DNA from: Acidobacteriota bacterium
Lineage (GTDB): Bacteria > Acidobacteriota > Blastocatellia > Pyrinomonadales > Pyrinomonadaceae
Reading direction: 5' to 3'
NCBI GenBank assembly: GCA_003222895.1
Contig: QHXI01000122.1
Coordinates: 1-32,951, forward strand
DNA length: 32,951 bases
Shown: positions 554-28,734 of the stretch, in pieces
Layout: each line of letters starts with the position of its first letter
How positions within the stretch are numbered: the first letter of the stretch is position 1
Translations under genes and position numbers: made by a program
The notes under the pieces: generated by a model
The model's input: only the letters and a program-made list of their open reading frames with translations
Databases searched by the model: none
Told to the model about the DNA's origin: nothing

Positions 554-2152
554 CTACTCAGCAGCAAAATAAGCTGTTGCGAGCTCTCGCTTCAGAAGCT
601 TGCCAGTCGGCCCTTTAGGAATATCGTTGACGATACGAATCGTCTTTGGGCACTTGTAATCGGCGAGCTCCGATTTGCAGTGATCGATCAATACTTCTTC
701 ATTGACTCTCATTCCATCTTTCAGTACGACGAAGGCTGCGACTTCTTCACCATATAAAGGATCGGGAACGCCAATCGTCGCGGCAGCGGCGACGGCAGGA
801 TGTTGATAGAGAACTTCATCGATCTCGCGTGGGTAAATGTTTTCACCGGCGCGAATGATCATGTCTGACTTCCGATCGACTATGAAGAAGAAACTATCCT
901 TGTCTCGATAGCCTATATCGCCCGTATGAAACCAACCGTTGCGAAATGCTTTTTCAGTTGCTTCGGAATTTTTGAAGTAACCTTTCAGAATATTTTCGCC
1001 GCGTAAGACGATCTCGCCGAGCCCGCCGTCTGGAACTTCATTGTCATCGTCGTCTACAACCTTCATTTCGTTACCAATCGGCAGACCGCACGAGCCTGCT
1101 CGCCGCCGCTCATCCGGAGGATTGAAAGTCGAGCGGCAGGTTGATTCGGACAAACCGTAACCTTCAATCACCGGGCAGTTGAAAGTCTGCTCGAACTTCT
1201 TCATTACTTCGGCCGGTACTGGCGCAGAGCCGCACATCGCAAAGCGAAGCCGATCAGTTTTCAATCCTGACGGCACTCCATCGGCATAGGTATTCAACAG
1301 CATCGACAACATCGTTGCGACCGACCCAAACGAAGTAATCTGATAATCCGAGATGATGTTCCAGAACTGCGACGCGGAAAACCTTGGACTTACGACCGTC
1401 GATCCGCCCGCATATAACGCCGACATTGTCGTGACCGAAACCGCGTTCATGTGAAAGAGCGGCATGATCGTCAGCAATCGATCGCTCGACGTGAAATTCA
1501 GCCACTCGCTAATCTGGCGCGCATTCGCGATGAGGTTTCCGTGAGTGAGTAAACAACCCTTTGGTTTTCCGGTGGTGCCTGAGGTGTAGATAATGATCGC
1601 ATCGTCATCGCGTGTAATGGTGTCAGAAACCCGCGCGTCAGCAAGGGCTTGTTCCGATTTGCCCCAGCCCAGTCGACCTGCTCGGCTGGGGAACCCGGAG
1701 TCGGGCTTCTGACACGAGAAGTCTCGCGCCGCTTTTTCTTCGTCATCAAACGTGATAATCGACTGCAGGTGTGGCAGCTGACTTCTAATCTCTTCGATTC
1801 GCTCGCGAAATTCCGGCGCTACCAGCATCGCCTTCGCTTCCGAATTATTCATGACGAATTCGATTTCGTGTTCTTTCAAAAGCGAATTCACGGGGCCGGC
1901 CAACGCTCCGAGCTTCCAACAGGCGAAGTACGCAATGATATATTCAGCGCTGTTCGGCATCAGCAGGCTAACGACATCGCCTTTGCTAATGTCATGGCTA
2001 GCGAGCATCGCCGCCGCGCGATCAACCGCGGCTTGAAATTCCGCGTAAGTAAACTGTCGCCCGCCCGCTTCAGAAAACAAGAAAGGTTTTTGCGTCGCCG
2101 CCGCGACTCTCTGTTGCAGCAAGTCGTAGATATTGCGAAATTCGCCCGTCAT
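554..2152 (-). CDS. AMP-forming acyl-CoA synthetase/ligase with an in-frame repeat insertion
   Basis: This 532-residue protein belongs to the class I adenylate-forming (ANL) family and should activate a carboxylic acid as an acyl-adenylate and transfer it to CoA. The phosphate-binding loop YTSGTTGKPKG is at residues 189-199. A GYGLSE motif follows, then the HTGD and DRKSD hinge region, and PTGK near the C-terminus with the catalytic lysine at about 518. These point to a medium/long-chain or aryl acyl-CoA ligase; the substrate cannot be read from sequence. Residues 146-177, just before the P-loop, are encoded by a 94-bp palindromic repeat (1621-1714) and look foreign to the family. The start has no clear ribosome site. 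The gene is divergent from the aldehyde dehydrogenase, sharing 165 bases of upstream DNA. Confidence 0.9.
   Translation of the reverse strand: MTGEFRNIYDLLQQRVAAATQKPFLFSEAGGRQFTYAEFQAAVDRAAAMLASHDISKGDVVSLLMPNSAEYIIAYFACWKLGALAGPVNSLLKEHEIEFVMNNSEAKAMLVAPEFRERIEEIRSQLPHLQSIITFDDEEKAARDFSCQKPDSGFPSRAGRLGWGKSEQALADARVSDTITRDDDAIIIYTSGTTGKPKGCLLTHGNLIANARQISEWLNFTSSDRLLTIMPLFHMNAVSVTTMSALYAGGSTVVSPRFSASQFWNIISDYQITSFGSVATMLSMLLNTYADGVPSGLKTDRLRFAMCGSAPVPAEVMKKFEQTFNCPVIEGYGLSESTCRSTFNPPDERRRAGSCGLPIGNEMKVVDDDDNEVPDGGLGEIVLRGENILKGYFKNSEATEKAFRNGWFHTGDIGYRDKDSFFFIVDRKSDMIIRAGENIYPREIDEVLYQHPAVAAAATIGVPDPLYGEEVAAFVVLKDGMRVNEEVLIDHCKSELADYKCPKTIRIVNDIPKGPTGKLLKRELATAYFAAE
1621..1714. repeat. 94-bp structured inverted-repeat cassette inside the ligase gene
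   Basis: The ends are TGTCAGAA (1621-1628) followed by ACCCG, and CGGGCTTCTGACA (1702-1714), an imperfect terminal inverted repeat. Inside is a further stem, CCCCAGCC (1662-1669) with GGCTGGGG (1684-1691). The same TGTCAGAACC type of end occurs in the cassette at 9911-9991, so this is a dispersed family. Here it is translated through without a stop. Confidence 0.7.
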
Positions 2153-6716: not shown

Positions 6717-6752
6717 CAACCGAGGTCCCCAGGATCTCGGTTGATTTATTTT
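6717..6752 (+). terminator. Rho-independent terminator after the S9 peptidase
   Basis: CAACCGAG (6717-6724) pairs perfectly with CTCGGTTG (6736-6743) and is followed by ATTTATTTT. It lies 36 bases after the stop codon. The right arm and tail (GGTTGATTTATT) also match the transposase-associated repeats at 7547-7558 and 7741-7752, so the terminator may derive from an old repeat copy. Confidence 0.65.
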
Positions 6753-6785
6753 GGAAGTAGCCATATAAGACACCTCGTTTCTGCG
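6727..6785. repeat. Diverged half-copy of the transposase-associated palindromic repeat
   Basis: The order GGTTGATTTATT, GTAG, ATATAAGACACCTCG here parallels GGTTGATTTATT, GTAG, CTATAAACATTTCG in the copy at 7547-7584. Similarity is partial and judged by eye. Confidence 0.4.
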
Positions 6786-6844
6786 TAGCGCGTTTACGGA
6801 TCTGCCGCCTGATGTGCGGAAAGGCTAAGCTGATTTCGCTCCGC

Positions 6845-6912
6845 CAGAAGCGACATGTTTATAGCAGAGGATTCCTGGTTTTATTTGGAGTTCCGTAGGG
6901 GCGTGACGTGAA
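6845..6912. repeat. Palindromic repeat half-copy directly before the transposase
   Basis: It contains GAAGCGACATGTTTATAGC and, 35 bases on, GAGTTCCGTAGGGGCGTGACGTGA. This parallels the left half of the copy at 7436-7510 (GCGCAATGTTTATGGC then GAGCTCCGTAGGAGCGTAATGTGA). The repeat runs to within a few bases of the transposase ATG. Confidence 0.6.
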
Positions 6913-6915
6913 CTC

Positions 6916-7377
6916 ATGGCCAACACCTTCTCACAAATCTATATTCAAACTGTCTTCGCTGTGAACAACCGCCAATCACTTATTGCGCCCGAATTCAAAG
7001 AAGAACTCTTCAAATACATTACAGGGATCGTCAGAAACCAAAAGCAGAAACTGATCGCCATCAATGGAATGCCTGACCACATCCACATCCTGATTGGACT
7101 GAGGCCAGCCATAGCGCTTGCTGATCTTGTTCAGGAAATCAAGGCTGATTCAACGAATTTCATCGATAAGAAGCAATTGGTCCACGGGCGATTCAGTTGG
7201 CAGGAAGGATACGGCGCGTTTTCGTACGGACATTCACAACTGAATACAATCATCCGATATATTCAGAATCAAGAGAGGCATCATCAGAAACGCTCATTCA
7301 AAGATGAATATCTAACCCTCCTGCGCAAGTTCGACATCGCATTCGACGATAAGTACGTGTTCAAATTTATCGGATAA
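6916..7377 (+). CDS. tnpA: IS200/IS605-family Y1 transposase (REP-associated-type)
   Basis: The 153-residue protein is a single-domain HUH endonuclease that would cut and rejoin single-stranded DNA at hairpin-bearing ends. The HUH motif is MPDHIHILIG, with His55 and His57. The likely nucleophile is Tyr115 in the RYIQNQERHH helix, and the QEGYGAFSY motif is also present. Length is normal for the family and the frame is intact, so the enzyme could be active. It has no accessory tnpB gene. Palindromic repeats of one family lie on both sides (6727-6912 and 7436-7781), and another copy is at 15668-15803, consistent with repeats it mobilises. The family is recognised from motifs; the link to these repeats is inferred from position. 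Confidence 0.9.
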   Translation: MANTFSQIYIQTVFAVNNRQSLIAPEFKEELFKYITGIVRNQKQKLIAINGMPDHIHILIGLRPAIALADLVQEIKADSTNFIDKKQLVHGRFSWQEGYGAFSYGHSQLNTIIRYIQNQERHHQKRSFKDEYLTLLRKFDIAFDDKYVFKFIG

Positions 7378-7435: not shown

Positions 7436-7600
7436 GAGCCCCGTCAGGGGCGCAATGTTTATGGCAACCGATTGCTTTTTTTATTTCGAGCTCCGTAGGA
7501 GCGTAATGTGAGATCGATCATTTACATTGCGCTCCTAAAGGAGCTTGGTTGATTTATTCCGGTCGTAGTTCTATAAACATTTCGCTCCTAGCGGAGCGAA
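7436..7600. repeat. Nested palindromic repeat, complete copy A
   Basis: The outer arms are GCGCAATGTTTATGG (7451-7464) and CTATAAACATTTCGCTCC (7571-7588). The inner arms are GAGCTCCGTAGGAGCG and CGCTCCTAAAGGAGC, around TGAGATCGATCATTTA. The ends carry their own small hairpins (CCCCGTCAGGGG; CGCTCCTAGCGGAGCG). The element is non-coding. Confidence 0.75.
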
Positions 7601-7640
7601 AGCAAAACAGGAATTCTCAAGCCACGCGGCGCGCCGTTAG

Positions 7641-7781
7641 ACGCGCAATGTTTATAGACCCTGCCTGCTGCCCAATTCCACAAGCTCCTTTAGGAGCGCG
7701 ATGTGAGATCGATCATTTACCTGCGCTCCTAAAGGAGCTTGGTTGATTTATTTCTAGCAGGGTTCTATAAACATTTCGCTC
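7641..7781. repeat. Nested palindromic repeat, copy B, cut at its right end
   Basis: This copy has the arms CGCAATGTTTATAG (7645-7657) and CTATAAACATTTCGCTCC (7765-7781). Its inner 61 bases (7692-7752) are nearly identical to 7497-7558 of copy A, 195 bases away. The final hairpin present in copy A is missing: after CGCTCC the sequence switches at 7782 to TIR-domain codons. Confidence 0.75.
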
Positions 7782-8552
7782 CGATACTGGCTGCCGAAAG
7801 TGATTCAAGCTTTAGACCCTTGGATGTCGGCGGATGATATTGATAAGGGCACGCGCTGGAGATCAGGAATCGCGACGGAGTTGGAGCAATCCAGTGTTGG
7901 AATCATTTGTTTGACTCGCGAAAATCTCGACTCAACATGGATTCATTTCGAAGCTGGAGCCCTTTCAAAGCAACAGCAAAATACCTACGTGTGTACATTC
8001 CTTTTTGGTTTAGGGCCGACTGATATCAGAGAACCCCTTGCACAGTTTCAAGCCACCACCGACAAAAGGGAAGATGTACGTAAACTAATCTTCACCGTCA
8101 ATCGAAGCCTCAACGAATCGCAACTACCAGAGTCGGAGCTTAACGAGAGTTTTGCGGTTTGGTGGCCTAAGTTAGAGGAACGTCTGCGTTCGATTCCGAT
8201 CTCAAGTGGCGGCGTGAAAGAGCCTATACGTGAGGATAGAGAAATATTAGAAGAGATTTTGGAATTGGTACGCGGGCAAGGAAGGCAACTGTTCATACCA
8301 ATTGAGGCCGACTCCATAACCGGCGAAACCTTGAGCTGGCGTACTCAAGAACTCCTTGCTCAGGAACTTGGATTGCAACGTGAATTGATTCAGAAAATGA
8401 AGTTCAATCCAGACTTTATTCGTGCTTTTCGAAACAGAATACGACGGATCGACAACTCCAAGCTTGAACCGCAGGAAGCGACACTTAAACTCACTCAGGA
8501 TAACTTGGAAGTGAGATCAGATGAAGACCCAAATGAAAACTCTAATCCGTAA
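7782..8552 (+). pseudogene. TIR-domain protein lacking its N-terminus
   Basis: The frame reads WLPKVIQALDPWMS, then DIDKGTRW, GIICLTREN and WIHFEAGALSK, the hallmarks of a bacterial TIR-like (TIR_2) protein of about 260-270 residues. The glutamate in FEAG is the position expected for NAD-cleaving activity. Related proteins begin with about 15-20 residues (a first beta strand with an ISWSG-type motif) before the WLP helix. Here those residues are replaced by repeat copy B, which ends at 7781. The first usable start is a GTG at 7800 without a ribosome site, so the gene is probably dead or N-terminally truncated. Its end overlaps the dihydropyrimidinase start by 32 bases. Intact relatives are often linked to anti-phage defence; here that is background only. 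Confidence 0.75.
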
Positions 8553-9909: not shown

Positions 9910-9910
9910 G

Positions 9911-9991
9911 TGTCAGAACCGGGAGCGGTAGCGACCGGATCGCGCCACGAAGCGATTGATTGATCCCGTCGCTATTGCTCCGGGTTCTGAT
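9911..9991. repeat. Palindromic cassette with TGTCAGAACC-type ends
   Basis: The left arm TGTCAGAACCGGGAGC with GTAGCGACCGG pairs imperfectly with the right arm CCCGTCGCTATTGCTCC and GGGTTCTGATA. The ends match the family seen at 1621-1714. It lies immediately after hydA and could form a long stem in the mRNA, but it has no T-tract, so it is not called a terminator. Confidence 0.65.
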
Positions 9992-10013
9992 AATCTTTGA
10001 ATGAGGCAAGGTG

Positions 10014-15667: not shown

Positions 15668-15803
15668 TTCGTAGGAGCCAAATGTTTATAGCAGTCGACG
15701 GCTCTTAAGGAACAAGCTCGATCAGGAGCGATGGTTCGCTCCTGATCGAGCTTGAAATCAAAATGCGAAATCGCAAACTATAAATATTTCGTCCCTACGG
15801 GAC
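15668..15803. repeat. Solo copy of the transposase-associated nested palindrome
   Basis: The core is a perfect 18-bp stem: AAGCTCGATCAGGAGCGA (15714-15731) with TCGCTCCTGATCGAGCTT (15736-15753) around a TGGT loop. Outer arms GTAGGAGCCAAATGTTTATAG and CTATAAATATTTCGTCCCTACG match the family seen at 7436-7781. It lies between the transporter and the ureidopropionase, with no transposase gene of its own. Confidence 0.75.
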
Positions 15804-20458: not shown

Positions 20459-21232
20459 TTAGATGTTTTCAAACTCCGCGATTACCGGAGCATGATCTGA
20501 CGGGCGCTCCCACGCTCTCGTCTCTTTATCAATCCAACATCTGAGGTTGCGCTGCGCGAGCGGCGGCGACACCCAAATGTGGTCGATGCGTAGTCCGAGA
20601 TTGCGGCGAAATCCGCCCGCGCGATAATCCCACCACGAATAATGTCCGCCTTCTTCGGTGTGCAGGCGAAACGTATCGGTGAAGCCCCAGTCCTTAATGT
20701 GCTGAAGCGCTGCTTTTTCCGGCTCGCTGAAAAGAATTCGGTTCCGCCAAAGCTGAGGATTGTGAACGTCGCGTTCTTCGGGAGCTACATTGAAATCTCC
20801 GCAAAGTAAAACCGGCGAATTCGGATCGTAATTCTGATCGAGAAACTCGCGCAGCCGTTTCATCCATCCCAGCTTGAATTGATATTTGTCTGAGCCGACG
20901 ATCTGGCCATTCGGAACATAGACATCAATGATTGAGGTGCCGGCGATGTCCGCCGCCAGCAAACGCGCGTGACTCTCGGCTGTGTCTTCGGGAAACCCGC
21001 GCACCACGTTCGCGCAATTGTTGCGCGCTACGATCGCGACGCCGTTGTAGCTCTGCTGGCCAAACAGTACACAGTCGTAGCCAACTGATTTCAATTCAAG
21101 CAGCGGAAACTTCTCGTCGGAGCATTTGGTTTCCTGAATGCAGAGGACGTCCGGCTTTTCTTTTTCGAGCCAGCGAGTAACCAGCGGCAGACGCGCAATG
21201 ATCGAGTTAACGTTCCAGGTAGCCAGTTTCAT
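20459..21232 (-). CDS. xth: Exodeoxyribonuclease III
   Basis: The 257-residue product is a full-length Xth-type apurinic/apyrimidinic endonuclease and 3'-5' exonuclease for base-excision repair. Motifs include ATWNVNSI with Asn7, CIQETKC with Glu34, IDVYVPNG, LCGDFNVAP, LRIDHIWVS and the terminal SDHAPV. The ATG lies at the edge of a heptamer-repeat array (21226-21291), so there is no normal ribosome site upstream. The gene follows the M20 peptidase by 63 bases and ends tail-to-tail with the small membrane protein gene. Confidence 0.95.
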   Translation of the reverse strand: MKLATWNVNSIIARLPLVTRWLEKEKPDVLCIQETKCSDEKFPLLELKSVGYDCVLFGQQSYNGVAIVARNNCANVVRGFPEDTAESHARLLAADIAGTSIIDVYVPNGQIVGSDKYQFKLGWMKRLREFLDQNYDPNSPVLLCGDFNVAPEERDVHNPQLWRNRILFSEPEKAALQHIKDWGFTDTFRLHTEEGGHYSWWDYRAGGFRRNLGLRIDHIWVSPPLAQRNLRCWIDKETRAWERPSDHAPVIAEFENI

Positions 21233-21291
21233 GTTTCAAGTTTCATGTTTCAAGTCTTCCAACCTGAAACTTGAAACCTGAAACCTGAAAC
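21226..21291. repeat. GTTTCA(A/G/T) heptamer array forming an inverted repeat
   Basis: Four or more tandem copies of GTTTCAAG/GTTTCATG (21226-21246) face CTTGAAACCTGAAACCTGAAAC on the other side of a short spacer (TCTTCCAACC). The array fills nearly the whole xth upstream gap and includes its start codon (GAAACATGAAAC read on the minus strand). Confidence 0.7.
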
Positions 21292-23888: not shown

Positions 23889-26800
23889 ATGTCTAAGTCT
23901 AAGTCCAAAACCCCATTGCGCCTCGCGCTGTCCCTAGTCGTCGTCTTCGCGGCGATTTATTTTTCCGTGTCAGGTACCAAAGTACGCAGCGCTGGAAATC
24001 CGAGCGTTGTTGTTAATAAGTACTTCAACTCTGGAACGACGGCCGACATAGTCGAGTTGCTGGTGATTCAAAACAACCTCGATATGCGCGGCATGATCCT
24101 CAAAGACTTTTCTGCGAGCATGGTGAATGACGGTGGCGGCAAGTATCAGTTTACCAACAATTCTCTATGGAGTAGTGTGCGCTCGGGAACGCTGATCGTA
24201 TTGAGGAATAACAACAGTGCGGCCGATACGACCGTCGGAGGCGGCGATTTTAACTTAGATGTAGGGCTTCAAAACACGACTTACTTCACGAATGCCGGCG
24301 GAACGTTTGACATCGCGGCTGTCGAAGAAGTGATGATCAAGACCGCTGGCAGCGGCGCCACCGGCGTTACCGGAAGCATTCATGCTTTGGCAGGAGGCAC
24401 GGCCGGCGCTCAATTTACTGCGACGGCGGTCCCGAAACTTATCGCGACGGGCCAGTCGGGCACCAATCAATTCGTTTTTGCGAACAACAGCACGCAGAGC
24501 ATAAATGACTTTGACGGAACGGGTGCGACAGGCGCGGCAACTGGCTTGACGTTCGGCGTTGGAAACAATGCGAATAACACCGCATATATCAACTCTCTTC
24601 GCGGTACCACAAACTTCAGTCTGAATGTCAGTCCTAATGGAACCGGTACTGGCACCGTAACCAGTTCACCCGCCGGCATCAACTGCGGAGCGCAGTGCTC
24701 GGCCAGCTATGCCAGCGGAACGTCGGTGACTTTGACCGCAACGGCTGCGGGCGGTTCCACCTTTACTAGCTGGAGCGGATGCGATTCGACCTCTGGAAAT
24801 ACTTGCACTGTGTCGATGACTGCGAACCGCTCAGTGACCGCGACGTTCACTGCGGTGGCGCAAACGCTAAACGTGACTCGTAACGGAACCGGCACCGGCG
24901 CCGTAACTAGTTCACCCGCCGGCATCAACTGCGGCGCTACATGTTCAGCAACATATTCTAACGGAACTATCGTTACCTTAACGGCGGCCGCTGATGTGAA
25001 TTCGAATTTCTCAAGTTGGAGCGGTTGTGACTCCGTTTCAGGGAACACTTGCAACGTTACGATGAATGCAACTCGTAATGTGACGGCAACTTTTACCTCC
25101 ACCCAAAGAACACTGAGTGTCAGTCGCGCCGGAACCGGTAGCGGGACGGTGACCAGTTCACCTGCCGGCATTAACTGCGGCTCAACATGTACCGCCACTT
25201 ATACCGATGGAACTATAGTGACGTTAACGGCCACGCCCGACACCAGTTCGAGCTTCGCCGGCTGGAGCGGCGCCTGCTCGGGTACCGGCTCTTGTACGAT
25301 TACGATGGACGGCAATAAATCCGCCACCGCGACCTTTAACTTCGTACCACCGCCGACGACGGTAAAAATCAGTCAGGTCTATGGCGGCGGCGGCAACTCG
25401 GGCGCGACCTACCTCAACGACTTCGTTGAGCTTTACAACTCTGGTTCGACTCCGGTCGTGCTCGACGGCTGGAGCGTCCAGGCAACATCGGCAGCCGGCA
25501 CGTCGTGGACTGCGAACGGACCAGCAACAATTCTTGCCGGAACGATCCAGCCTGGCCACTATTATTTGGTTCAGGAATCCCAGGGAACGGGGGGCACTAC
25601 TCCGCTGCCGACAGCGGATGCGACCGGAGTGATCACGATGAGCGGCACGAACGCCAAGGTGGCGCTGGTCGCCAGCAGCGCGACGCTGAGCGGCTCATGT
25701 CCGCTCGGTGGTGTCGTCGTAGATTTTGTGGGCTATGGTACCGCCAACTGCTCGGAAGGCAACGCTCCTACCGGCACACTGAGTAACACCACCGCCGCCG
25801 TTCGACGAGGCAACGGCTGTCAGGATACCGATAACAACGCGAATGACTTTGTCACCGTTGGGCCTATCCCTCGCAATAGCACGTCACCGACGCATTCATG
25901 CGGTGGCGATCCGGCGCAACTTTCAGCTCTGGGCATTGGCTCTCCTGATTCAGTTGATCCGGCCAGCACAACTCTGTTGACGGTCGCAGTCACACCGGCA
26001 ACAATTCCGCCGAGCACCGGGATCGCAGTCAGCGCCGATCTAACCAGCATCGGTGGTCTAGCCTCACAAACGTTTTACGATGACGGCACTAACGGCGATA
26101 CCACCGCCGGCGATAACGTCTTTTCATACCGAGCGATCGTTGGCGCCGCCGTTACGACGGGTGTCAAGAATGTTGTCGCGACGGTAACAGACGCGCAGGC
26201 TCGTTCAATCAACGAATCGATTACGCTGACAGTGCAAAGCCCCTCCTGCGGGGTCGAACGTTGGTCAGTCAAGGTTGGCAGTGATCCCGATGCGAGTCTT
26301 GTGGATATCAATCATCCGGTTAACACTACGATTGCCGCTCTCGGCGCGATTCCTGCTCCAGCCGATCCTCCGGGACCGCCGGACAATGCTCGCGTAGCGC
26401 CGACTGAAACTACAGTCTATACGGTCTATGCGACGATGACTGTCTACAAAAAAGAGGCCGACGTCGATTATCACATCGTGCTTACGGACGATACTGGCCA
26501 CACAATGGTCGCCGAGATCCCGTCGCCGGCATGTATCCTGGCGCAGAATCCGAGTGGTCCTGGTCGCGTGCTGGTATCGAGTCCGTTTACTCAGGGAATT
26601 ATGGATTCGCGCGCGAAATTCGACTCGCGATTCACCGCAACATCCTTCTTCCAGACGGCCAATGTTCCGGTGCGCGTGACCGGCGTTGGCTTCTTTGACT
26701 TCATCCATGGTCAGACCGGCGTGGCTCCGAACGGCATCGAGCTGCACCCAATTCTTAGTATTGACTTCACCGCCAATACCAGCACGACACTGATGTCGAG

Positions 26801-27251: not shown

Positions 27252-27891
27252 AACCTATACCAGCACGGCGATTGAACCGTGTACTGCCTCGTATTCCGGT
27301 GCAGGCGGACTCAGCGGGACGTTGACGCCGACCTATTCAAATAACATTAACGCCGGTCCGGCCACCGCGAATGCTACGTATGGCGGCGATGCGAATCACG
27401 AAGGCAGCACCGGAAGCAGCAGCTTCACGATCGACAAGGCTTCGTCATTTACGACGTTGAATTGCCCGGCAAGTGAAACGTTCACCGGGGTTTCGATCGA
27501 ACCGTGTACCGCGTCGGTGACCGGCGCCGGGGGACTCAACCAGGCGGTAACACCAGCTACCTACGCAAACAACATAAACGCGGGCTCTGCGACGGCAGCC
27601 GCAACTTACGCGGGCGACGCCAATCACGACACCAGCACCGGCAACGGTGGATTCACGATTACGAAGGCTACGTCGACAACGACGGTGAATTGTCCTGTGA
27701 TTGAGACCTACACCGGCGGTCCGATTGAACCTTGCACCGCAACCGTGACGGGCGTAGGTGGTCTGAACCAGTCAGTCACAGTGTCCTACACAAACAACAC
27801 GAACGCTGGAACGGCTACGGCGAACGCCACTTACGGTGGAGATGCGAATCACGATGGCAATTCCGGCAACGCCGCCTTCACCATCGCGAAG
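27060..27891 (+). repeat. Tandem array of four units, about 225 bp each, the first missing 71 bp
   Basis: Units begin at 27060, 27214, 27439 and 27667 and end at 27891; their lengths are 154, 225, 228 and 225 bases. Each normal unit encodes about 75 residues with TTTVNCP..ETYTG..IEPCTA, GAGGLNQ, NAGTATA.ATYGGDANH and TITKA. The first unit lacks the NAGTATA..GDANH part, and the 71-base deficit throws the reading frame. Confidence 0.85.
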
Positions 27892-28734
27892 GCTACGCCC
27901 GTAATCACGTGGAACGATCCTGCTGATATTGTTTACGGTACGGCGTTAGGCGCTGCTCAACTTAACGCTACCGCAAATGCGGCGGGGAGTTTCAGCTACA
28001 CGCCGGCCAGTGGAACGCTGCTCAATGCGGGGGCGGCACAACCGTTGCTCGCAAGCTTCACTCCAAATGACCCAGCGAACTACAACGCCACCAGCAAGAA
28101 TGTACAGATCAACGTGTTGAAGGCGACACCCGCTTTCAGCAATCTGAGTTCGCCTACAATCACAGCCGGGACCGCGACGACAATCCTTTCGGGCAAGATT
28201 AGCTTTGGATCTTTTGTTCCGACTGGAAACGTCGCGATCACTCTGAACAGCGTTACGCAGAATGCCGCGATTCAGGGAGACGGAACCTTCTCATCGGCTT
28301 TCGCAACTAATTCGTTGGCGGCGGGAACTTACACAATTGCATACAGCTTCGGCGGAGACGGCAATTTCAACTCTGCCAGTGGGGCCGGAACGCTGACGGT
28401 CGGATATGGGATCGTGGCGTTGTACGATCAGACGAAGGTACACCAGAGCGGAAGCACGATTCCCATCAAGCTGGCGATAACTGATGTCAATGGCAACAAC
28501 TTGTCTTCAGCCGGTACGATAGTAAACGCGGTCGGTATGTCTCTGGTGTCGACTACCGTTTACGGGCCGGTCGCCGACTCGGGAAATTCAAACCCCGATA
28601 ATAACTTCAGGTTCAGTGGAGACAGTTACATCTTCAACCTGCAGACTACGGGATTGGTAACCGGGATTTACAACCTGTACTTCAGAGTTGGCGCCGATCC
28701 GACGTTGCATACGGTGCAGTTTCAGGTTAAGTGA
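27202..28734 (+). CDS. Large secreted multidomain protein, 3' part (out of frame with its 5' part)
   Basis: The frame has no ribosome site of its own; its homology starts at about 27187 (GSSTFMITKA), before the first Met, so it is the displaced C-terminal half of the preceding gene. It holds three intact array units, each with the paired cysteines VNCP or LNCP and EPCTA. A segment TPVITWNDPADIVYGTALGAAQL (MBG-like) comes next, then an Ig-like domain (SPTITAGTATTILSG). The C-terminal domain contains GSTIPIKLAITD and ends TVQFQVK. The last domain type is frequent at the ends of secreted acidobacterial proteins. Without the upstream signal peptide this part cannot be exported. A good terminator follows. 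Confidence 0.75.
   Translation: MITKAASTTTVNCPTNETYTSTAIEPCTASYSGAGGLSGTLTPTYSNNINAGPATANATYGGDANHEGSTGSSSFTIDKASSFTTLNCPASETFTGVSIEPCTASVTGAGGLNQAVTPATYANNINAGSATAAATYAGDANHDTSTGNGGFTITKATSTTTVNCPVIETYTGGPIEPCTATVTGVGGLNQSVTVSYTNNTNAGTATANATYGGDANHDGNSGNAAFTIAKATPVITWNDPADIVYGTALGAAQLNATANAAGSFSYTPASGTLLNAGAAQPLLASFTPNDPANYNATSKNVQINVLKATPAFSNLSSPTITAGTATTILSGKISFGSFVPTGNVAITLNSVTQNAAIQGDGTFSSAFATNSLAAGTYTIAYSFGGDGNFNSASGAGTLTVGYGIVALYDQTKVHQSGSTIPIKLAITDVNGNNLSSAGTIVNAVGMSLVSTTVYGPVADSGNSNPDNNFRFSGDSYIFNLQTTGLVTGIYNLYFRVGADPTLHTVQFQVK

What the first reader, a model, noticed from the sequence alone, without database searches (positions are those of the whole stretch)
1621..1714. 94-bp palindromic cassette translated in frame within an acyl-CoA ligase
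Residues 146-177, just ahead of the ATP-binding loop, come from a cassette with TGTCAGAA inverted ends and an internal 8-bp stem. The same end type occurs in non-coding DNA at 9911. The ligase frame stays open and all catalytic motifs are intact, so a mobile repeat may have added a 31-32 residue loop to an enzyme.
Basis: partly seen in the sequence, partly recalled or inferred. Interest (0 to 1): 0.62.

Follow-up and report, generated by a model that had tools for sequence, protein, structure and literature searches.

The report
Mobile DNA palindrome translated inside enzyme
A bacterial fatty-acid-activating enzyme carries a floppy 32-residue loop that is a translated copy of a scattered, probably mobile, palindromic DNA repeat, and some relatives have different repeats in the same spot, so a few protein linkers seem to collect such DNA repeatedly.

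Summary
Window 1620-1715 (96 bp, 32 codons) is a palindromic element read in frame in a FadD-like acyl-CoA ligase (ORF 554-2152, minus strand). It belongs to a dispersed family: its 14-base end has 57+55 hits in the genome against 2+1 for the reversed control; 54 distinct two-ended copies were collected. Seven genes carry one in frame: the ligase, an AddB-like nuclease, pyruvate:ferredoxin oxidoreductase, an aconitase-type hydratase, a radical SAM protein, HutF and RsmE. AlphaFold leaves residues 147-173 disordered. No flanking duplication of 4 bases or more was found; 1 of 34 RAYT loci examined has both ends nearby.

Less expected: some orthologues carry unrelated palindromes in the same linker; two of those families are multicopy in their own genomes. 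In 50 ligases the 12 strongest inverted repeats fall in two sites. HutF and the radical SAM gene hold inserts at one site in several species, in differing forms.

In kind this matches Rickettsia palindromic elements and intragenic REPs. The family, its host group and the repeated use of one linker were not found described in the searches made.

The parts
554..2152 (-). FadD-like acyl-CoA ligase (532 aa) that carries the element in frame
   Evidence: ORF; Pfam AMP-binding and AMP-binding_C; NCBIfam NF004837 491.9 bits, cut-off 476
1620..1715 (-). palindromic element GTGTCAG...CTGACAC, 96 bp, residues 147-178
   Evidence: boundary from 54 copies; family in the genome; fold; residues 147-173 pLDDT under 50
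1620..1648 (+). Q-type arm of the element (slightly diverged)
   Evidence: against the arm consensus
1662..1691 (.). inner GC-rich hairpin (8-bp stem) that replaces the inner part of the P-type arm
   Evidence: the same variant at four other places of the genome, in P-arm context
1700..1715 (-). outer part of the P-type arm
   Evidence: against the arm consensus
9910..9992 (+). intergenic palindrome that shares the GTGTCAGAA end but has another body; possibly a related family

Best explanation
The segment is one copy of a short, non-autonomous, dispersed palindromic repeat: two inverted arms that begin GTGTCAGAA, with a variable spacer. Shown: over a hundred end matches in the genome; seven of 54 two-ended copies in frame in identifiable genes; a disordered loop predicted in the ligase; inserts at the same site in several species for HutF and the radical SAM gene. 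Inferred: copies land at many sites; those that break a gene are lost, while those that keep a reading frame and fall in a surface linker are tolerated and translated. At least two of three frames on each strand of each arm are open, which helps survival. Movement is probably in trans, by an enzyme that leaves no clear target duplication (a Y1/HUH-type transposase is the likeliest guess). The added peptide is most likely neutral. A few linkers, such as the one ahead of the ligase ATP-binding loop, tolerate inserts so well that unrelated repeat families have entered them repeatedly.
For: Genome-wide family over control: 57+55 against 2+1, 73+74 against 0+0 for a second pattern. 54 two-ended copies, 33 P-Q and 12 P-P. 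In-frame copies in seven genes, with gaps or breaks at or around the insert in alignments to solved homologues for four of them. A shorter copy of the same family in frame in the same linker of G006 and none in G002. RsmE insert in G000 only. Insert disordered in the model.
Against: No experiment; translation is inferred from open frames and homology. No mobiliser found. The ligase insertion is not clean (24 residues gained for 32 codons). Arm types differ between species at one site, which a single insertion plus point mutation does not explain. At 2-3 bases some flank identities exceed expectation slightly (for example 3 against 0.9), so a very short duplication is not excluded.
Confidence: 0.86

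Rival explanations
1. The element is a REPIN moved by one of the genome's own RAYT (Y1) transposases, so it belongs to the REP/RAYT system proper.
For: Two inverted REP-like arms, no target duplication of 4 bases or more, eight Y1_Tnp matches in the genome.
Against: Of 34 RAYT loci of the genus examined (of 85 matches listed), only L122, a partial RAYT, has both ends, about 1.1 kb away; five others have one lone hit with two mismatches. Some loci are cut by contig ends. The window's own RAYT has quite different repeats beside it.
Confidence: 0.3
2. The insert has been domesticated: the loop changes the activity, partners or stability of the ligase and is kept by selection.
For: G006 also has a copy in frame at this linker, and HutF and the radical SAM gene hold inserts across species.
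Against: G002 and G005 do without this element in the linker; the loop is predicted disordered; inserts of unrelated sequence occupy the same site, which argues against a specific peptide.
Confidence: 0.07
3. Assembly artefact: a dispersed repeat was joined wrongly into the gene.
For: The genomes are drafts; in G001 the sequence upstream of the element is not ligase and in G003 the contig starts at the linker.
Against: In G000 and G006 both halves of the ligase lie in one open frame with the element between them, and several species carry inserts at one site in HutF and in the radical SAM gene.
Confidence: 0.03
4. The hairpin works at the RNA level (for example as a pause for the ribosome between folding units) and the peptide is a by-product.
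For: Strong fold in the gene's sense strand; unrelated palindromes, not one peptide, recur at the site.
Against: Nothing here tests it; many orthologues have no strong inverted repeat there (6 of 50 at score 12 or more in that linker); no Rfam match in the window.
Confidence: 0.05

Closest known systems
Rickettsia palindromic elements (RPE) and Wolbachia WPE (Ogata and colleagues; known here only through passages of PMC2229807 and PMC10969869 and a reference list)
   Same: Short dispersed palindromes found in frame inside conserved protein genes as well as between genes; host proteins probably remain functional.
   Different: Another phylum, another sequence and shorter (27 of 54 copies are 72-74 bp; RPEs are given as 105-146 or about 150 bp in the reviews). 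Relatives carry unrelated repeats at the same protein site.
Intragenic GTAG- and CGTC-tagged REPs (Di Nocera et al. 2013, PMC3733652; passages seen)
   Same: REP dimers translated inside genes, proposed there to sit in flexible linkers; that paper already notes different REPs at about the same site of recB in two Xanthomonas species, and that CGTC REPs have no associated transposase.
   Different: The arm consensus starts GTGTCAGAA rather than with GTAG or CGTC. In the passages seen Acidobacteria appear only for tyrosine transposases with long inverted repeats, one such repeat family being multicopy in Koribacter versatilis. Same-site use seen here spans more families and species.
REPIN/RAYT systems
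   Same: Two inverted short arms; no clear target duplication; RAYTs present in the genome.
   Different: The arms do not flank the RAYTs examined, save one partial gene about 1.1 kb away.
MITEs moved by DDE transposases
   Same: Short, terminal inverted repeats, non-autonomous.
   Different: No target duplication of 4 bases or more; no parent transposon found, though none was searched for outside the loci held.

Membership tests
RPE-like protein-coding palindromes (as a kind) | dispersed palindromic repeat of about 50-200 bp | tested here: met
   54 two-ended copies of 52-194 bp, counting the outer G and C
RPE-like protein-coding palindromes (as a kind) | in-frame copies in conserved protein genes | tested here: met
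   7 of 54 copies; solved homologues
RPE-like protein-coding palindromes (as a kind) | translation and activity of the host protein | not testable with these tools
   open frames and a model only
Rickettsia RPE families | sequence similarity to RPE-1 to RPE-10 | not tested
   no RPE sequence was compared
REPIN/RAYT | two inverted REP arms | tested here: met
   45 of 54 copies are P-Q or P-P dimers, 9 unclear
REPIN/RAYT | RAYT gene flanked by the same REP | tested here: not met
   1 of 34 loci has both ends within about 1.5 kb, at a partial RAYT; the rest of the 85 matches were not examined
GTAG or CGTC REPs | GTAG or CGTC tetranucleotide at one end of the repeat | tested here: not met
   the ends read GTGTCAG in the 54 copies; the inner end of the arms reads GGGC
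DDE-type MITE | terminal inverted repeats | tested here: met
DDE-type MITE | target site duplication | tested here: inconclusive
   none of 4-9 bases in 54 copies at seven boundary offsets; slight excess at 2-3 bases
Known RNA families (Rfam 15) | match above gathering score in the window | tested here: not met
   0 matches

The most novel reading that the evidence does not exclude
Linkers of some enzymes act as landing pads: once one palindrome is tolerated there, later palindromes of the same or other families preferentially insert into it or replace it, so one protein site turns over repeat-derived peptides across a bacterial class, a standing source of new loops in otherwise conserved enzymes.
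Probability: 0.15. Interest if true: 0.78.

Novelty: new member of a known kind. Interest (0 to 1): 0.52.

Why it matters
Translated palindromes are best known from intracellular Rickettsia and Wolbachia; here they occur in core enzymes of Acidobacteriota whose record titles include groundwater and palsa samples. Orthologues with different repeats, or none, at one site form a natural series for asking whether such inserts are neutral, how they are replaced, and whether they ever become useful. The old question of selfish DNA as a source of new protein segments becomes testable by comparing orthologues with and without inserts.

Tried and rejected
One search listed 100 of its 112 hits; the 12 not listed were not fetched, so 54 is a lower bound. 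Single-ended copies were not assessed for coding.

Idea: TTCTGAC(AC) is a tag shared by several hairpin families. Exact inverted TGTCAGAA pairs in 117 loci not chosen for the element: 2 distinct, both the same G001 site in two records, against 0.03 for permuted tags. Hairpin followed by TTCTGAC in 107 loci outside the genus: 6, against a mean of 1.2 for 200 permuted tags, of which at least five reach 6-8. Inconclusive; left as a lead.

RAYT as mobiliser by adjacency: not supported. DDE-type MITE with a duplication of 4 bases or more: not supported. Rfam: nothing in the window. Nested insertion of a separate GC hairpin into the P arm: in the loci held it was found only in P-arm context (five places, the window's included), so it is better called an arm variant. 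Papers: the listings of searches show none on such elements in Pyrinomonadaceae or Blastocatellia; only passages of three papers were read. Ogata 2002 (PMC186582) is not held.

Rows dropped: 50 distinct ligase orthologues entered the repeat scan; duplicates, low-scoring, masked (X) and N-truncated ones were left out. L044, L163 and L172 had no recognisable ATP-binding motif. The two scan sites were chosen after seeing the positions, so the p-values are descriptive.

Full report
WHAT WAS CHECKED. The window holds a 532-aa acyl-CoA ligase ORF on the minus strand (554-2152), with AMP-binding and AMP-binding_C matched over their whole profiles or nearly so and best NCBIfam match NF004837 over its cut-off. 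Comparison of 54 copies extends it by one base on each side: GTGTCAG...CTGACAC, 1620-1715, 96 bp or 32 codons. The RNA folds at -49.4 kcal/mol, z -3.6.

A DISPERSED FAMILY. A search of the genome with the cassette and 10 bases either side gave 16 matches, 15 of them to parts of it elsewhere. The 14-mer GCGGGYTTCTGACA with one mismatch gives 57 forward and 55 reverse hits, against 2 and 1 for the pattern read backwards. Forty stretches around hits and the earlier loci yielded 54 distinct copies with both ends, plus a list of single ends. A copy is two inverted arms of about 28 bases, P (TGTCAGAAGCCCGACCGTNAGGGAGGGC) and Q (TGTCAGAAGCCCGCGCGTNAGCAAGGGC), around a variable spacer: 33 are P-Q, 12 P-P, none clearly Q-Q, 9 unclear; 27 of 54 are 72-74 bp long, counting the outer G and C. 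The ligase copy has a Q arm and a P arm whose inner part is a GC-rich hairpin; that variant was seen at four other places. No copy is flanked by identical bases of length 4 or more at any of seven boundary offsets; at lengths 2-3 there is a slight excess at some offsets.

WHO HAS IT. With CGGGCTTCTGACAC at one mismatch the seven genus genomes G000-G006 have 147, 139, 90, 195, 30, 12 and 115 hits, against 0-4 in the control. 91 of 116 genomes have at least one hit, most at the level of the control; several outside the genus are above it (for example G022, G079, G075, G077, G033, G037). The hits listed for G022, G079 and G075 are largely variant ends. The clade appears to be Pyrinomonadaceae (class Blastocatellia, phylum Acidobacteriota), judged from titles of records with the same or close ligases; the genome itself is unnamed.

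IN-FRAME COPIES. A frame and codon-usage test flagged five of the 54 copies; L002 and L096 fell short of the filter but have Pfam matches on both sides of the element or across it. The seven: the ligase; an AddB-like PD-(D/E)XK protein (L002, aa 501-536), with a decayed second copy of the GC-rich arm further upstream; pyruvate:ferredoxin oxidoreductase (L054, 71-91); an aconitase-type hydratase, between its small and large domains (L057, 256-280); a radical SAM protein (L067, 70-94); an HutF-type amidohydrolase (L092, 221-245); RsmE (L096, 211-234). Alignments to solved homologues have gaps or breaks at or around the insert for PFOR, HutF, RsmE and the hydratase. The other 47 copies are in no frame that passed; they were not proven intergenic one by one.

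THE LIGASE LINKER. G006 (83% identical) has a short P-P copy in frame at the same linker. G002 (85% over the part aligned) has none. G005 (80%) has a different inverted repeat there. G001 has the C-terminal part with an element at its edge and unrelated sequence upstream; G003's contig begins at the linker with a peptide that would fit an arm; G004 has no hit at the threshold; none of G001, G003 and G004 has an N-terminal hit at 1e-30. Between fixed motifs the linker has 44 residues here and 20 in G002 (my count), a gain of 24 for 32 codons of element. AlphaFold with 32 orthologues (mean pLDDT 78.9; the five models range from 56.1 to 78.9) has pLDDT under 50 at 147-173, the longest such stretch; 191-197, 333-340 and 392-395 are also low.

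OTHER FAMILIES AT THE SAME PLACE. Linkers of other orthologues contain other palindromes or repeat-like sequence, judged by eye and fold. Two types were tested for copy number. The type in G005 has 109 matches against 2 in the control with three mismatches, and is also above control in most other genus genomes. CCGCCCGCTGACGCAGGCGGTTCTGAC has 12-47 matches in each of eight genomes against 0; in L149, L155 and L150 it is read as PPADAGGSD in the linker, which may be one shared event. In 50 distinct orthologues 12 inverted repeats score 12 or more: 6 in the 60 residues before the ATP-binding motif, 6 at 100-125 residues after it, none elsewhere; codon-shuffled genes give 1.3 on average, range 0-3. 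Binomial p is 0.001 and 8e-6, for sites chosen after the fact and without correction for ancestry. The window's own copy scores 11 and is not among the 12. At a cut-off of 10 the picture is weaker: 27 repeats, 13 of them in the linker, against 11 in shuffled genes.

PERSISTENCE AND TURNOVER. In HutF an insert of this kind is readable at one site in six of seven genus genomes (for G001 and G004 from the protein alone), while G005 has another sequence there; in G006 part of it looks replaced by a repeat like that of G005. In the radical SAM gene G000, G001, G002 and G003 carry recognisable arms, G006 and G005 sequence too decayed to assign, and G004 an empty site; of 11 other genomes with the gene 10 are empty, and G013, of another genus, has a CCACC...GGTGG palindrome at the same point (its copy number in G013 was not tested). 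Arm combinations at that site differ (P-Q in G000, P-P in G003, Q-P in G002), which one insertion plus point mutation does not explain; gene conversion, inversion and reinsertion remain open. In RsmE only G000 has the element among the genomes aligned. In a tree of three proteins G001 and G003 group (100), G000 joins them (71), and the group with G006 has support 51 only, so a single ligase insertion before these four split is allowed but not shown.

MECHANISM. Shown: dispersed copies, in-frame copies, no duplication of 4 bases or more, repeated use of sites. Inferred: insertion at many places with loss of harmful ones, translation of the rest, neutrality, and a Y1/HUH-type enzyme acting in trans. 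Of 34 RAYT loci examined only one, a partial RAYT, has both ends nearby.

COMPARISON. Reviews seen in passages describe RPEs as palindromes fused in frame in many Rickettsia genes, with one tested enzyme still active (PMC2229807; PMC10969869). Di Nocera et al. describe GTAG and CGTC REPs inside genes, suggest flexible linkers, and note different REPs at about the same site of recB in two Xanthomonas species (PMC3733652, passages); so same-site use has a precedent. The present case works like these. It differs in its ends, its host group and the breadth of same-site use. The listings of searches show no report of it for this group.

VERDICT. The finding is real and is well explained as a new family of a known kind. 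The repeated occupation of the same linkers by unrelated palindromes is the part worth following.

Noticed in passing
window 6916-7377 (+), repeats at 6731-6879, 7437-7782 and 15673-15706: A RAYT-like Y1 transposase (Pfam Y1_Tnp, E 1.9e-26) with its own, different repeats (ATGTTTATAG/CTATAAACAT type) on both sides.
   Followed up: partly
window 21226-21291: A palindrome built of GTTTCA-like units; linkers of some class-level ligase orthologues (L031, L033, L034) hold inverted repeats of a similar tandem kind.
   Followed up: no
ligase orthologues L042, L146, L147, L149, L155, L160, 100-125 residues after the ATP-binding motif: A second site in the same enzyme where several unlike inverted repeats sit.
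   Followed up: partly
L027 (G001): The ligase sequence starts at the element; what lies upstream is unrelated, and no N-terminal half was found in G001 at 1e-30: a misassembly or a rearrangement at the repeat.
   Followed up: partly
window 24617-25270 and 27331-27922: Internal repeats of 246 and about 228 bases, about 70% alike, inside long ORFs.
   Followed up: no
L067/L225 downstream of the element: About 15 further residues that end in VPNGRGSDP look like a decayed second arm beside the first insert.
   Followed up: no
window 9910-9992: A strong palindrome with the same GTGTCAGAA end and another body; whether several families share this end could not be settled.
   Followed up: partly
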